From positions 1-64,000 of the forward strand of contig JAUJNZ010000004.1 of NCBI GenBank assembly GCA_030447905.1: a DNA stretch of 64,000 bases, in the 5' to 3' direction. Below, piece by piece: positions 1 to 59,391 of this stretch. The stretch is from Thermoleophilaceae bacterium (GTDB lineage Bacteria; Actinomycetota; Thermoleophilia; Solirubrobacterales; Thermoleophilaceae). A program made the translations under genes and the position numbers. The notes under the pieces are model-generated. The model ran no database searches, was not told the DNA's origin, and saw only the letters and a list, made by a program, of their open reading frames with translations. Every line of letters starts with the position of its first letter. Positions within the stretch are counted from its first letter, which is position 1.

Positions 1-608
1 CCGTAGGCCCCGCCGAGCACGAGCGCGAGCTCCTCCTGGTCGCGCTTGGTGATCCCGTAGACGCTGATCGGTCGCAGGCCGTGGTCCTCGCGCGCGGGCA
101 CGAACCCGACCGGCTCGCCGTCGAAGGGACAGCGCGGCTCCCAGTCGCGGCGGCGCAGCTGGTCCAGGGAGCGCACACCGGGCTGGACCTCGCCGTGCTC
201 GGCGCAGCGGTAGGTGCCCTCGCCGTAGACGACCATCGAGGAGGCGACCACGAGCCTGTGTATATGGTCGCGGCGGGCGAGCACGGCCTCGAGCAGCGTC
301 GCGGTGCCGCCGCAGTTGGCGTCGACGGCCCGGCGGACGTTCATCATCGACTCGCCGTTTCCAACCGCGCCGCCGAGGTGGAAGACGCGGTCGACGCCTT
401 CGAGGGCGCGCTCGACGGCGGCCGGGTCGCTCAGGTCGCCCTGGATGAGCTCGGCCTCGGGGTCGAGGTGAGCCGGGACGGTCGCCTCGGGATGGGCGAG
501 GCGATCGAGGTTGTCGAGCACCCGCACCCGCTCGCCGCGCGCGAGCAGCGCGTCGACGAGGTGGGAGCCGATGAAGCCGGCGCCGCCGGTGACCAGCACA
601 GTGCTCAC
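1..608 (-). CDS. NAD-dependent epimerase/dehydratase (3' end cut by window)
   Basis: Extended SDR-family nucleotide-sugar epimerase or dehydratase, likely acting on an activated sugar for surface polysaccharide. The GTG start at 608 is followed at once by the Rossmann NAD-binding loop VLVTGGAGFIGSHLVDALL, then an acidic cofactor residue in RVLDN and the conserved GDLSD. SSMVVYGEG and the YGITK catalytic Tyr/Lys pair lie further on. The C-terminal part lies beyond position 1. It is divergent from the ABC transporter genes. Family is clear; substrate cannot be read from what is visible. Confidence 0.85.
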   Translation of the reverse strand, partial: MSTVLVTGGAGFIGSHLVDALLARGERVRVLDNLDRLAHPEATVPAHLDPEAELIQGDLSDPAAVERALEGVDRVFHLGGAVGNGESMMNVRRAVDANCGGTATLLEAVLARRDHIHRLVVASSMVVYGEGTYRCAEHGEVQPGVRSLDQLRRRDWEPRCPFDGEPVGFVPAREDHGLRPISVYGITKRDQEELALVLGGAY

Positions 609-10533: not shown

Positions 10534-12168
10534 TCAGCGCCGCCGCCGCAGCACGTGCGCGTCGCCGCGGCGAACGGTGACCTTCTTGGCGTCGAGGTGC
10601 TCGAGCAGCGCCTGCGCGTAGCGACGCGAGGTGCCGAGCTCGTTGCGAACGCCGGCGATCGTCGCCTCGCCGTCGCGCTCGCACATCGCTACAACGCGCG
10701 CCTCGAGCCCCGCGAGCGGCTCGGGCGCCCAGTGCAGGTTCTGCCCCACGCGGACCGCCCGCCCGGCCCGGACGAGCTCGGCGAGCCGTCTGCGGGCTGA
10801 CGCGGGGTCGAGGCCGGCGGCCTCGACCAGCTCGGCGTCGGCGCGCGGACGTTCGCCGTCGTCGAGCAGGAGCTCGGCGAGCCTCAAGGCCGCTGCGTCG
10901 AGCTCCGGTGGCATCGGTGCGACCGAAGGCCGGTCGCGGGCCTCCGAGCGGCCGGAGCGGCGCGGCGCCGGCCCGGTGGCCTCGTCAGGCCGTTCGCCCC
11001 GCTCGAGAGCGGTCAGCCGCCGCAGCATCTCCTTCCCGCCCCGATGCCGGCGGGGGCGCGCGTCGACCACGACGCCCCCGCCGAGCGTGTCGGGTGGCGC
11101 GATCTGGCGGATGATCAGCCGGTCCCCGATGGCGGGCACGAGCGGGGACTCGAGCCGTAGCTGCGCCAGCGTCGCAGACCCGGGTCCAAACCCGTCCCCC
11201 TCGAGGGCGAAGATGCGGCCGGGCGCTTCGCGCGTGCCATGGTGCACCTGCACGCGCATCCCCGACTCGAGCCCGCCGGCGCTGCCGCCTCCCTCGAGCG
11301 AGAGTCGCGCGTCCACCCGATAGGTCGCGCGCAGCTCGTCGTTCACAGCGCAGACCACGTCGCCGCGTCCGAGCTCTCGCCAGCTCACCCCGGCCAGGTT
11401 CAACGCGAGACGCTGCCCGGCCCCCGCCCGCTCGACGGGCCTGTCGTGCACCTGCAGCGACCGCACGCGGGCCCTCAGCTCCTGAGGCACGACGCGCATC
11501 GCGTCTCCGGCGGCGATCTCGCCGGACCAGAGGGTCCCGGTCACGACGGTGCCGATCCCGCGCAGGGTGAAGGAGCGGTCGACGTGCAGCCGGGGCGAGC
11601 CGCCGGTCCCGCCGGCGGCGCGTCCGGGCAGCGTCGCCGCCGCCCGGGCGCGGGCGGCGAGCAGGTCGCCGAGGCCGGTCCCCAGCCGGGCCGACACGGG
11701 GACGGTCTCGACGCCCGGCACGAGCTCGGCGACCTCCTCCGCGGCCAGCTCAGGCTCGCCGACGTCGGCCTTGGTCACCGCAACGACGCCCGTGTAGACG
11801 CCGAGGCCGCGAAGCACCGCGAGGTGCTCGCGGGTCTGAGGCATTACCCCGTCGTCGGCGGCGACGCACAGCAGGAAGAGGTCGATCCCCGAGGCGCCCG
11901 CGACCATCGTGCGGACGAAGCGGCCGTGACCGGGAACGTCGACCACCGACAGCGGCCGGCCGCTCGGGAGGTCGAGCGGCGCGTACCCGAGCTCGATCGA
12001 GATCCCGCGCTTGTGCTCCTCGGGCAGGCGGTCGGTGTCGCGCCCGGTGAGCGCGGCGATCAGAGCGGTCTTGCCGTGGTCGATGTGACCCGCTGTGCCG
12101 AGCGTGAGAGGCGCGGATCCGGTTCCCGGCTGAGCCGGGCCGGTCACCGGCTTTGCGGCCGAGCTCAA
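10534..12168 (-). CDS. selB: Selenocysteine-specific translation elongation factor SelB
   Basis: SelB carries Sec-tRNA(Sec) to in-frame UGA codons marked by a SECIS hairpin. The GTPase domain has G1 [13 protein letters not shown], the GISIELGYA switch, G3 DVPGHGRF and G4 TKAD, followed by EF-Tu-like domains 2 and 3 ([16 protein letters not shown]). The C-terminal third (about residues 390-544) holds the winged-helix domains that bind SECIS RNA. About 544 aa is normal to slightly short. The TTG start overlaps the selA stop (TTGA), so translation is coupled; GTG at 12147 is an alternative start. Confidence 0.95.
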
Positions 12169-13460
12169 GCTTCCCTCAGGGCGGCTGCGACCGCCGCGGC
12201 AGCGAGGTCGGCGCCTTCGTCGTCCAGCGTTCGCGGGTCCAGCAGCAACCTTCCCTCCGCGGCGCGGGCGATCACCGGCGGCGATGTCATCCGCAGCCGC
12301 GCGGCCAGCTCGTCGACGCCGACTCCCTCGGCCGAGACCGCGCACACCGGACCCTCGAGCTCGAGCAGCGGCAGCGTGCCGCCGCCCATCTTCGCCGACG
12401 AGCGCTCCACGCCCGCCGCGATCCCGGCTCCACCAAGGGCCGCCTGCATTCGGCGCGCCCGCGCCTCGAGCTCGGTCTCGTCGGCGCGCAGCATCGCCAG
12501 CACCGGAACCTCCCGCGTAGCGGTGGCCGGGTCGCGGAGAAGGCGCAGGGTGGCCTCGAGCCCGGCCAGCGACAGCTTGTCGATCCGCAGCGCGCGCGCG
12601 AGCGGATGCCGGCGACAGCGCTCGAGCGCCGCGGCCGTCCCGGCCATCAGCCCGGCCTGGGGCCCGCCGAGGAGCTTGTCACCGGAAAAGCACACGACCG
12701 CGCAGCCCGCGGCCACCGAGCGCCTGACCGAAGGCTCGTCCGCCAGCTCCGCGACGCCCTCGACCACGGCCCCCGACCCGGCGTCGTCGATCACCGCCAG
12801 CCCCGCCGTCCGACCGAGCTCGCAGAGCTCCTCGATCGACGCCTCCTCGACGAACCCGACGGTCCGGAAGTTCGACGGGTGGACCCGCAGGATCGCCGCG
12901 GTCTCCGGACCCACGGCGCGTGCGTAGTCGCTCGCCCGAGTGCGGTTGGTCGTTCCCACCTCGACGAGCCGCGCCCCCGATGCCTCGACGACCTCGGGCA
13001 CCCGGAAGGACCCCCCGATCTCGACGAGCTGGCCGCGCGAGACCACGATCTCTCCCCCGCCGCCCAGCGCGCTCGCAGCGAGCAGCACCGCCGCGGCGCA
13101 GTTGTTGACGACGAGCGCGCCCTCGGCGCCGGTCAACTCGCGCACGAGTCCCTCCACGTGCTCTTGTCGCGACCCCCGGGCTCCTCGAGCGAGGTCATAT
13201 TCGAGCGTCGAGTAGCCCGCGCCGACGGCGACCGCGGCCTCGAGCGCGGGCCGGGCGAGCGGCGCCCGCCCGAGGTTCGTGTGGAGGATCACGCCGGTGG
13301 CGTTCAGGACCGGGCGCAGGCTCGGGGCGGCCGCGGCGGCGCCGAGCGCCCGCGCGTCGGCCTCTAGTTCCGCGGCGTCCGTGGCGCCGGACGCTCCGTC
13401 GCCCGCGGTCGCCACAAGCTCCGCCCGGCGGGCGTCGATCACCGTCCGGGCGGATTCCAC
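12165..13460 (-). CDS. selA: L-seryl-tRNA(Sec) selenium transferase SelA
   Basis: PLP enzyme that converts Ser-tRNA(Sec) to Sec-tRNA(Sec) using selenophosphate. The core NATGVILHTNLGRAPL, the DDAGSG aspartate and the PLP lysine in FSGDKLLGGPQAG are all present. The listed GTG start is the first conventional start, but the same frame continues upstream without a stop to about 13540 and encodes RRLRQLPSVEELASRLADLP, which matches the usual SelA N-terminus. The true start is therefore upstream and may be CTG (near 13526) or another non-standard codon. Stop overlaps selB. Confidence 0.93.
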   Translation of the reverse strand: MESARTVIDARRAELVATAGDGASGATDAAELEADARALGAAAAAPSLRPVLNATGVILHTNLGRAPLARPALEAAVAVGAGYSTLEYDLARGARGSRQEHVEGLVRELTGAEGALVVNNCAAAVLLAASALGGGGEIVVSRGQLVEIGGSFRVPEVVEASGARLVEVGTTNRTRASDYARAVGPETAAILRVHPSNFRTVGFVEEASIEELCELGRTAGLAVIDDAGSGAVVEGVAELADEPSVRRSVAAGCAVVCFSGDKLLGGPQAGLMAGTAAALERCRRHPLARALRIDKLSLAGLEATLRLLRDPATATREVPVLAMLRADETELEARARRMQAALGGAGIAAGVERSSAKMGGGTLPLLELEGPVCAVSAEGVGVDELAARLRMTSPPVIARAAEGRLLLDPRTLDDEGADLAAAAVAAALREA

Positions 13461-58204: not shown

Positions 58205-58561
58205 CTAGAAAGTCACCACCTCATAGCCGTCGGAGATCAGCCGCCGAAGGCTCGGATGCCCCTCGTACTCCTCGAGCAGGGGAACGGGACTCTGCTCGAC
58301 CTGCTCACGGACGCCGAAGGCACTCGAGCAGTAGGCGCAGGCGCCCTCCACGAGATCTTGGGTGTCGGCGAGCAGCTGGTGGTACTGGTGCTCGGGGTCG
58401 GAGAGCTCGGCGACCCACTTGGTGCCCGCGCCGTCGAAGACGATGAGAGCATCGTCGCCTGCATCCCTGAACTCCTTGGCGCTGGTCAGGGCGTTCACCG
58501 CCCGACCGAGTCCCTCGGGGGTGTCGGTATCGGCCAGGATGACCAAAGCGGCCTTGGGCAT
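58205..58561 (-). CDS. DsrE/DsrF-like small protein
   Basis: Protein of 118 aa. The N-terminal ALVILADTDTPEGLGRAVNAL and FRDAGDDALIVFDGAGTKWV strands, with a CAYCSS cysteine pair near residue 75, suit the DsrE-like fold. Members handle sulfur or persulfide, or are soluble regulators. ATG with AAGGAG six nt upstream. Confidence 0.78.
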   Translation of the reverse strand: MPKAALVILADTDTPEGLGRAVNALTSAKEFRDAGDDALIVFDGAGTKWVAELSDPEHQYHQLLADTQDLVEGACAYCSSAFGVREQVEQSPVPLLEEYEGHPSLRRLISDGYEVVTF

Positions 58562-58685: not shown

Positions 58686-59288
58686 TCATCCGCCCGGACG
58701 GGAGTCCCCTCCGGTGGGTAGCTCACGGCACGGCCTCGCGGGCGTCAGCCTCGCCGCGCGCACTGCTGCAGCGAGTCGGTCGACCGATGGGCGGTCCTCG
58801 GGGCCCCTGCTTCGGTAGGCCCACGTAAGACGCCCGCGAGCGTCGAACACCGCGTCGCCGCCGAGCTGCAGCGTGTCCTGGTCGGCCGGGCTCTCGGGAC
58901 GACGACCACGGAGGAGGAGGGCGGCGTAGCGCCGCCACACCCGGGGATCGAGCCAGACGCGGCGAGCCGAGGCACGGCCGAAGCCGAGCGCGCGGTAGGT
59001 AGCGCGGTCGGGATCGCCGTAGACCGGATACGGCAGGTCGAGCTTGCGCTCGAAGCCGCGGAGGGCCTGCGGCTCGGCGAAGGTCACGCAGACGACGCGC
59101 GCGCCGATCTCATCCAGGTGCTCAGCGACCTCGACCAGGTGCTCCCGGCAGGGCAGTCACCCGAGGTGGCGCAGATGGATGAGGAGCGTCGGCTCTCCTT
59201 CGCAGACAGCAGCGAGGCGATGGCGGTTCCCCGAGGGGTCGATGATCTCGAGCTCGGAGGGGAGCGGGTCGCCGAGGGCGAGGGCCAC
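58686..59288 (-). CDS. Predicted selenoprotein: AhpC/TSA-like thioredoxin-fold protein with UxxC motif (UGA = Sec at 59157-59159)
   Basis: One continuous frame of 200 codons interrupted only by TGA at codon 44. Before it: LALGDPLPSELEIIDPSG and PTLLIHLRHLG. After it: LPCREHLVEVAEHLDEIGAR, VVCVTFAEPQALRGFERK, LPYPVYGDPDRATYRALGFG and GGDAVFDARGRLTWAYRS. This is the AhpC/TSA-like peroxiredoxin fold, in which the usual redox motif reads CxxC after a hydrophobic strand; here it is U-L-P-C. Family similarity on both sides, correct frame and the position of the UGA at the redox residue make Sec far more likely than a nonsense mutation. GTG 59288 is the only start (in-frame TAG just upstream). selA and selB are in this window. 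Ordinary gene calling would keep only 58686-59087. Confidence 0.85.
59124..59143 (-). promoter_or_regulatory. Candidate bacterial SECIS hairpin
   Basis: Read on the minus strand, AGCACCT and AGGT(C)GCT form a 7-bp stem with one bulged C around the apical loop GGTCG. The stem starts 13 nt, and the loop 20 nt, after the UGA at 59157-59159, within the 16-37 nt loop distance usual for bacterial SECIS elements. A G-starting loop with GGU matches the SelB-binding feature of the E. coli fdhF element. Stem seen by eye; no folding energy was computed. Confidence 0.6.
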
Positions 59289-59391
59289 GGACTCAGGCTA
59301 CTCGCCGGGGAGCGGCGGGCGAGCGTCAGCGGGCGCGGCCGAGGCGGGCCAGCCGCTCCGGCGGCACGGCGAGCAGGTAACCTCCTTCGCC

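What the first reader, a model, noticed from the sequence alone, without database searches (positions are those of the whole stretch)
58686..59288. Hidden selenoprotein: thioredoxin-fold protein with an in-frame UGA in a UxxC motif
The frame is open on both sides of one TGA (codon 44). Both sides belong to the same AhpC/TSA-like fold, and the TGA sits exactly where a redox cysteine should stand (G-U-L-P-C-R-E-H). Only the downstream 133 codons would be predicted by standard software. Sec-containing peroxiredoxin-like proteins with UxxC or UxxU motifs are known in a few bacteria. An example in a lineage with its own selA/selB would be a genuine missed gene.
Basis: partly seen in the sequence, partly recalled or inferred. 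Interest (0 to 1): 0.92.

Follow-up and report, generated by a model that had tools for sequence, protein, structure and literature searches.

The report
Missed selenocysteine-containing Prx-like redox protein
A soil-type actinobacterium carries a real gene that standard software cuts in two, because one UGA 'stop' codon is read as the rare amino acid selenocysteine at the active site of a thioredoxin-fold redox protein; it belongs to an already catalogued family (SelL-related) and is a clear but not revolutionary new member.

Summary
Confirmed. On the minus strand, window 59288->58686, there is one continuous 200-codon gene (GTG start) with an in-frame TGA at codon 44 (59159-59157). The protein scores above the cut-off of NCBIfam NF040769 'SelL-related redox protein'. 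Among 81 distinct relatives, the codon aligned to this TGA is TGA in 67 and Cys in 14; nothing else occurs. A same-genus relative from a separate assembly keeps the TGA. The genome has SelA and SelB (both in this window), tRNA-Sec and SelD. SelA is present in 39/44 genomes with the TGA form, 5/12 with only the Cys form. Downstream hairpins covary across the family; the window copy's own hairpin is minimal (4 bp) and alone proves nothing. AlphaFold (pLDDT 94.7) gives a peroxiredoxin-like fold; the best PDB match is human PRXL2B with C44xxC47. Likely mechanism: Sec44-Cys47 cycles between selenol/thiol and Se-S bond as a thiol-disulfide oxidoreductase. A MerA/lipoamide-dehydrogenase-like FAD enzyme, encoded near it in 9 of 25 related loci, is the candidate reductase (inferred). 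New member of a known kind; substrate and partner open.

The parts
58689..59288 (-). SelL-related selenoprotein, 200 codons, GTG start at 59288, Sec at codon 44; terminal stop TGA 58688-58686
   Evidence: NF040769 145.5 bits, cut-off 120; PF13911 56.2 bits, cut-off 27; start matches the ATG start of the same-genus gene L068:3025
59157..59159 (-). in-frame TGA read as selenocysteine (Sec44)
   Evidence: TGA or Cys in every aligned homologue
59148..59150 (-). Cys47, the resolving cysteine of the UxxC motif
   Evidence: invariant in 58/58 aligned proteins
59128..59140 (-). candidate bacterial SECIS upper stem-loop ACCU-GGUCG-AGGU: 4 bp, 5-nt loop beginning with G, 20 nt after the UGA
   Evidence: consensus hairpin of the UL[PI]C clade (31 rows); fits the published bSECIS geometry only minimally, as do 46% of random stretches of this window
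58686..59087 (-). truncated 133-aa ORF that standard software would report
12225..13310 (-). SelA, selenocysteine synthase
   Evidence: PF03841 424 bits; TIGR00474 504 bits, cut-off 268
10543..12105 (-). SelB, Sec-specific elongation factor (next to selA on the same strand)
   Evidence: TIGR00475 285 bits, cut-off 242, in a 714-codon open frame

Best explanation
The gene encodes a selenocysteine-containing, thioredoxin-fold redox protein of the SelL-related (PRXL2-like) family. SHOWN by sequence comparison: UGA44 stands exactly at the catalytic Cys position of the family, the organism encodes SelA, SelB, SelD and tRNA-Sec, and the region after the UGA is a conserved coding sequence. INFERRED: SelB, bound to a short hairpin about 20 nt after the UGA, delivers Sec-tRNA-Sec. 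The selenol of Sec44 at the N-terminus of helix 1 attacks an oxidised substrate, and Cys47 resolves the intermediate as an intramolecular Se-S bond. A disulfide reductase then restores it. The best candidate is the MerA/dihydrolipoyl-dehydrogenase-like FAD enzyme whose gene lies beside this gene in many relatives; in this genome it is encoded on another contig. The protein therefore probably works as a fast thiol-disulfide or peroxide reductase of unknown substrate.
For: Family membership: NF040769 above cut-off, all 58 aligned relatives hit the same model. TGA/Cys alternation at one column with Arg40 and Cys47 invariant, 8-10 Sec/Cys changes on the tree and the window gene in a 100/99 clade of 5 Sec and 2 Cys rows. 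Sec machinery in the genome: SelA, tRNA-Sec 68.7 bits, ARAGORN tRNA-SeC with anticodon TCA, SelB, SelD. SelA in 39/44 genomes with the TGA form, 5/12 Cys-only (p=0.0017), 11/35 without the TGA form (p=3e-7). SECIS: main clade has an 8-bp stem, mostly with AGUU loop, 92.4% paired, covariation 0.699 against 0.230 shuffled; Leu codon in that loop is TTG in 19 of 20 main-clade Sec genes then held, against 7% TTG overall; clade of the window gene, 92.5% paired, covariation 0.182 against 0.063, inner 4 bp also found by RNAalifold. Fold: pLDDT 94.7 with residue 44 just before helix 45-56, best PDB match 9usa human PGFS C44S/C47S, E 8e-10, TM 0.82 by target. Reductase: FAD enzyme near the gene in 9 of 25 loci in two phyla (types), ortholog 64% identical in this genome.
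Against: The window copy's own hairpin is only 4 bp, its folding energy is not unusual among synonymous sequences (z 0.38), and nearly half of random stretches would pass the same geometric test. The hairpin codons also encode conserved residues, so part of the pairing is coding constraint. Five genomes with the TGA form show no SelA, three of them over 90% complete. No proteomic or 75Se evidence exists here. The FAD partner is not adjacent in this genome and its role is guilt by association; substrate unknown.
Confidence: 0.9

Rival explanations
1. Pseudogene or sequencing error: a TGC or TGT codon decayed to TGA, the protein is dead.
For: A single-base change makes TGA from TGC/TGT; Cys forms exist in the same order (L051, L052).
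Against: Identical TGA in an independent same-genus assembly and in dozens of genomes of several phyla; no other frame break; purifying selection after the TGA; TGA form tracks SelA.
Confidence: 0.02
2. UGA is a true stop and a shorter protein starts again at GTG 59087 (133 aa).
For: This is what gene callers report; a GTG stands there, and the same-genus gene also has a GTG-started ORF of 113 aa.
Against: That fragment lacks the catalytic motif and the first strands of the fold; the 43 codons before the TGA are conserved and aligned in all relatives, and in Cys forms the reading is continuous.
Confidence: 0.02
3. UGA is reassigned or misread as Trp or another amino acid rather than Sec.
For: None found.
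Against: The gene itself ends with TGA, as do many homologues; aligned residue is Cys, never Trp; tRNA-Sec, SelA, SelB and SelD are present.
Confidence: 0.01
4. Sec is right, but the protein is mainly a peroxidase (PrxQ/AhpE-like) reducing hydroperoxides, with Cys47 as resolving residue, and not a general thiol-disulfide oxidoreductase.
For: After 9usa, most of the listed Foldseek matches are peroxiredoxins such as PrxQ/Bcp and AhpE; 23 of 58 rows weakly hit the thiol peroxidase model PRK09437.
Against: The best family model is SelL-related and the best structure a PRXL2 reductase; the classical Prx signature PxxxTxxC is replaced by RHxxUxxC with the second redox residue three positions on, the arrangement of oxidoreductases (sequence; family knowledge).
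Confidence: 0.3

Closest known systems
NCBIfam NF040769, SelL-related redox protein (bacterial)
   Same: Full-length match above curated cut-off, UxxC/CxxC at the same place, many members with TGA
   Different: The window gene belongs to a UL[PI]C...HLV subclade whose SECIS hairpin lies about 5 nt nearer to the UGA and is shorter than in the RHYGUxxC main clade
Eukaryotic selenoprotein L (SelL)
   Same: Prx-like fold family with Sec in the redox motif; the GOS paper lists SelL among families shared by bacteria and eukaryotes (PMC2398784)
   Different: SelL has UxxU (my knowledge) and a 3'-UTR SECIS; here UxxC with the hairpin inside the coding region
Human PRXL2B (prostamide/prostaglandin F synthase), PDB 9usa
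   Same: Best structural match; C44xxC47 corresponds in spacing and number to U44xxC47
   Different: 19% identity, Cys instead of Sec; no reason to expect prostaglandin chemistry in this bacterium
Pfam PF13911 AhpC-TSA_2 selenoproteins with UxxS (AhpC/TSA family protein, PMC9312934, PMC13188914)
   Same: Same Pfam family, Sec in the redox motif
   Different: Second redox residue here is Cys, not Ser
Prx-like thiol:disulfide oxidoreductase, PF00578, UxxC/UxxU (PMC9312934)
   Same: UxxC motif and AhpC/TSA superfamily
   Different: Here PF13911 is the better Pfam match

Membership tests
NF040769 SelL-related redox protein | whole-protein score above curated cut-off of 120 bits | tested here: met
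   145.5 bits, residues 12-175 on profile 5-172 of 173
NF040769 SelL-related redox protein | CxxC or UxxC redox motif at the N-terminus of helix 1 | tested here: met
   U44-L-P-C47, helix 45-56 in the model
Bacterial selenoprotein | in-frame UGA aligned with Sec or Cys in homologues | tested here: met
   67 TGA, 14 Cys of 81 distinct genes
Bacterial selenoprotein | SelA, SelB, SelD and tRNA-Sec in the genome | tested here: met
Bacterial selenoprotein | bSECIS hairpin: 4-16 bp upper stem, 3-9 nt loop with early G, 16-37 nt after UGA (PMC13188914) | tested here: inconclusive
   geometry met at the minimum (4 bp, loop GGUCG, 20 nt), but 46% of random stretches also pass; clade-level covariation supports it
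Bacterial selenoprotein | Sec in the purified protein (75Se or mass spectrometry) | not testable with these tools
   no experiment
Selenoprotein L proper | UxxU with diselenide bond | tested here: not met
   UxxC: second residue is TGC/TGT Cys in this and all homologues examined
Classical peroxiredoxin (AhpC/TSA, PrxQ) | PxxxTxxC peroxidatic motif | tested here: not met
   sequence around codon 44 is LIHLRHLGULPC
PRXL2 / PF13911 AhpC-TSA_2 | Pfam gathering score of 27 bits | tested here: met
   56.2 bits, E 5e-15; fold match to PRXL2B

The most novel reading that the evidence does not exclude
The UL[PI]C clade is a functionally distinct branch of the SelL-related family. It has its own short SECIS set closer to the UGA and works as the Sec partner of a dedicated MerA/lipoamide-dehydrogenase-like flavoprotein, in a pathway that in relatives also includes a TIGR04283 (arsenosugar-type) glycosyltransferase and an Rv1681-like radical SAM enzyme, i.e. 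a selenium-dependent redox step in an undescribed small-molecule pathway.
Probability: 0.12. Interest if true: 0.65.

Novelty: new member of a known kind. Interest (0 to 1): 0.42.

Why it matters
It shows a real gene split by automated annotation, in a lineage (Thermoleophilia, soil actinobacteria) where selenoproteins are little discussed. The comparison gives a natural series of Sec/Cys replacements (at least 8-10 changes on one tree) within a single redox family, with the hairpin and its rare TTG codon mostly absent from the Cys forms. That is good material for testing what keeps Sec in a protein. The repeated neighbourhood with a flavoprotein disulfide reductase offers a first testable handle on the function of SelL/PRXL2-like proteins in bacteria.

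Tried and rejected
Whole-window Rfam scan found no SECIS or tRNA-Sec in the window; tRNA-Sec is on another contig. Single-sequence folding after the UGA is not convincing (z -1.5 on dinucleotide shuffles; z 0.4 on synonymous shuffles). The main-clade stem register (+20..27/+32..39, counted from 0 at the U of UGA) does not fit the window copy (5 of 8 pairs); the clade-specific register (+19..22/+28..31) does. A scan of the window for further UxxC/CxxU-type readthrough frames gave only low-complexity frames besides this gene. Sec in SelD was excluded: it is the Cys form (GCASK). Other TGAs in flavoprotein hits: in L158 it lies at the natural end of the gene; L160 is only a partial match. phmmer against PDB sequences found nothing useful; the fold search did. 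A phylum search centred on the Myxococcota locus was not accepted by the tool. Papers on NF040769 by name: none in the library.

Full report
WHAT IS THERE. The frame lies on the minus strand, 59288 to 58686: GTG start, 43 codons, TGA (59159-59157), 156 codons, terminal TGA. An in-frame TAG stands a few codons upstream of the GTG, so the start is tightly bracketed; the same-genus gene L068 starts at the aligned position with ATG. Standard ORF calling yields only the 133-aa part after the TGA. The plus strand at these coordinates has no comparable protein.

WHAT FAMILY. Read through the TGA, the protein matches NCBIfam NF040769 'SelL-related redox protein' with 145.5 bits (cut-off 120) along nearly the whole model and Pfam PF13911 AhpC-TSA_2 (56.2 bits, cut-off 27). 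All 58 members of the alignment made with it hit the same NCBIfam model.

THE TGA POSITION. Searches in the family (31 genomes), order (232), class (399) and phylum (397) (the sets overlap) and a scan of named genomes gave 81 distinct relatives (the window gene included) for the tree. At the aligned position 67 have TGA and 14 have TGC; the residue three positions later is always Cys. With TGA read as Cys, the only invariant columns of a 58-row alignment are Arg40, position 44 and Cys47. The nearest relative (MGR_bin71, labelled Thermoleophilaceae, 72% identity) has the same TGA at codon 44. Other TGA forms come from Candidatus Siliceabacter, Solirubrobacteraceae, Acidimicrobiales, Myxococcales and 'Deltaproteobacteria' MAGs now placed in Myxococcota. 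On a maximum-likelihood tree at least 8 (best 10) Sec/Cys changes are needed, and the window gene sits in a fully supported clade of 5 TGA and 2 Cys forms. Between the window gene and its same-genus relative dN/dS is about 0.20 after the TGA and 0.55 before it (rough NG86 counts).

MACHINERY. SelA (window 12225-13310, minus) and SelB (10543-12105, minus) are in the window itself, tRNA-Sec with anticodon TCA on contig C24, SelD (Cys form) on C4. SelA occurs in 39 of 44 genomes that carry the TGA form, in 5 of 12 with only Cys forms (Fisher p=0.0017) and in 11 of 35 genomes without a TGA form (p=3e-7) (search; I made the counts from its table, tests). One genome with both forms (G185) was left out of these counts. 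Many of the genomes are incomplete drafts, so absences are soft, and the genomes are related, so the p values are only indicative.

SECIS. The 36 main-clade rows with TGA show an 8-bp hairpin 25 nt after the UGA with, in most, an AGUU loop: 92.4% of cells paired, six of eight pairs with double changes, covariation 0.699 against 0.230 in shuffles and at most 0.181 when slid. The loop forces a Leu TTG codon, used in 19 of the 20 main-clade TGA forms held at that stage (the other has Ser TCG) against 7% TTG among Leu codons overall, while only one of the 14 Cys forms has TTG there. The 31 rows of the window's clade (ULPC, ULIC and similar motifs) use another register, 20 nt after the UGA: 92.5% paired, covariation 0.182 against 0.063; RNAalifold picks the same inner four pairs unaided. 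The window copy keeps exactly those four pairs (ACCU-GGUCG-AGGU) and lacks the outer two. It thus meets the published bSECIS limits (PMC13188914, Fig. 2) at their minimum, but 46% of random stretches of this window do so too. So the hairpin of this single gene is plausible, not shown. Part of the clade-level signal is coding constraint (His-Leu-Val-x-Val).

FOLD AND FUNCTION. AlphaFold2 with the 58-row alignment gives mean pLDDT 94.7, residue 44 immediately before helix 45-56. The best PDB match is human prostamide/PGF synthase (PRXL2B) with its C44/C47 pair mutated, followed by many PrxQ/Bcp and AhpE peroxiredoxins. I infer a Sec-based thiol-disulfide oxidoreductase or, less likely, a peroxidase; the substrate is unknown.

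NEIGHBOURS. In 9 of 25 loci of the window's clade and its Myxococcota relatives a MerA/lipoamide-dehydrogenase-like FAD oxidoreductase lies within a few kb, directly beside the gene on the same strand in L129, L130 and L142 and divergently beside it in L136 and L148. In the window's genome four flavoproteins match the same query at E<=1e-20 in 2.58 Mb, so about 0.3 would be expected in the roughly 0.215 Mb examined; the loci are related, so this is only a rough comparison. The ortholog in this genome (64% identity) is on contig C24, a few genes from another Rv1681-like radical SAM gene. In the same-genus relative the gene follows a TIGR04283 glycosyltransferase and an Rv1681-like radical SAM gene. 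In the window a DsrE-like gene lies 124 bp downstream on the same strand.

VERDICT. The gene is a new member of a known, curated family with many Sec members, so the surprise is moderate. What is open is the Sec insertion signal of this clade, the reductase and the substrate. What rests on my own knowledge: the Prx signature PxxxTxxC, UxxU in eukaryotic SelL, and the general UxxC mechanism.

Noticed in passing
window 59326-59379, minus strand: Just upstream of the selenoprotein start is a 15-18 codon stretch (YLLAVPPERLARLGRAR-stop) like the C-terminus of the TIGR04283 glycosyltransferase that precedes the gene in the same-genus locus L068; the rest is replaced by an oppositely oriented SDR-like gene, as if the old gene order had been cut there. 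An intact copy of the glycosyltransferase lies on contig C3.
   Followed up: partly
window 58205-58561, minus strand: Small DsrE/DsrF-like protein (PF02635) directly downstream of the selenoprotein with a CAYC motif; DsrE-like UxxC selenoproteins are known (PMC9312934), so a Cys form next to a SelL-related Sec protein is notable.
   Followed up: no
L089, L090, L095, L102 (same class): A further Sec subclade with motif RHPGUxVC and a stem in the main-clade register whose loop carries GU (CGUGYC) instead of AGUU.
   Followed up: partly
L135, L136, L137, L139, L145, L148: DUF3179-like genes (named from their sequence, not scanned) near the SelL-related gene in six loci; DUF3179 proteins are another reported selenoprotein family (PMC9312934).
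   Followed up: no
G000 contig C19:11961-14107 (L166, L167, L169): Formate-dehydrogenase-like alpha subunit without in-frame TGA but with a change of frame between two matched parts; possible frameshift or assembly error.
   Followed up: no
L161:9440-11422 (own genome, C24): Near the FAD-enzyme ortholog: DoxX-like, AhpD/CMD-like (CRYC motif; both named from sequence only) and Rv1681-like radical SAM genes, a possible redox cluster.
   Followed up: no
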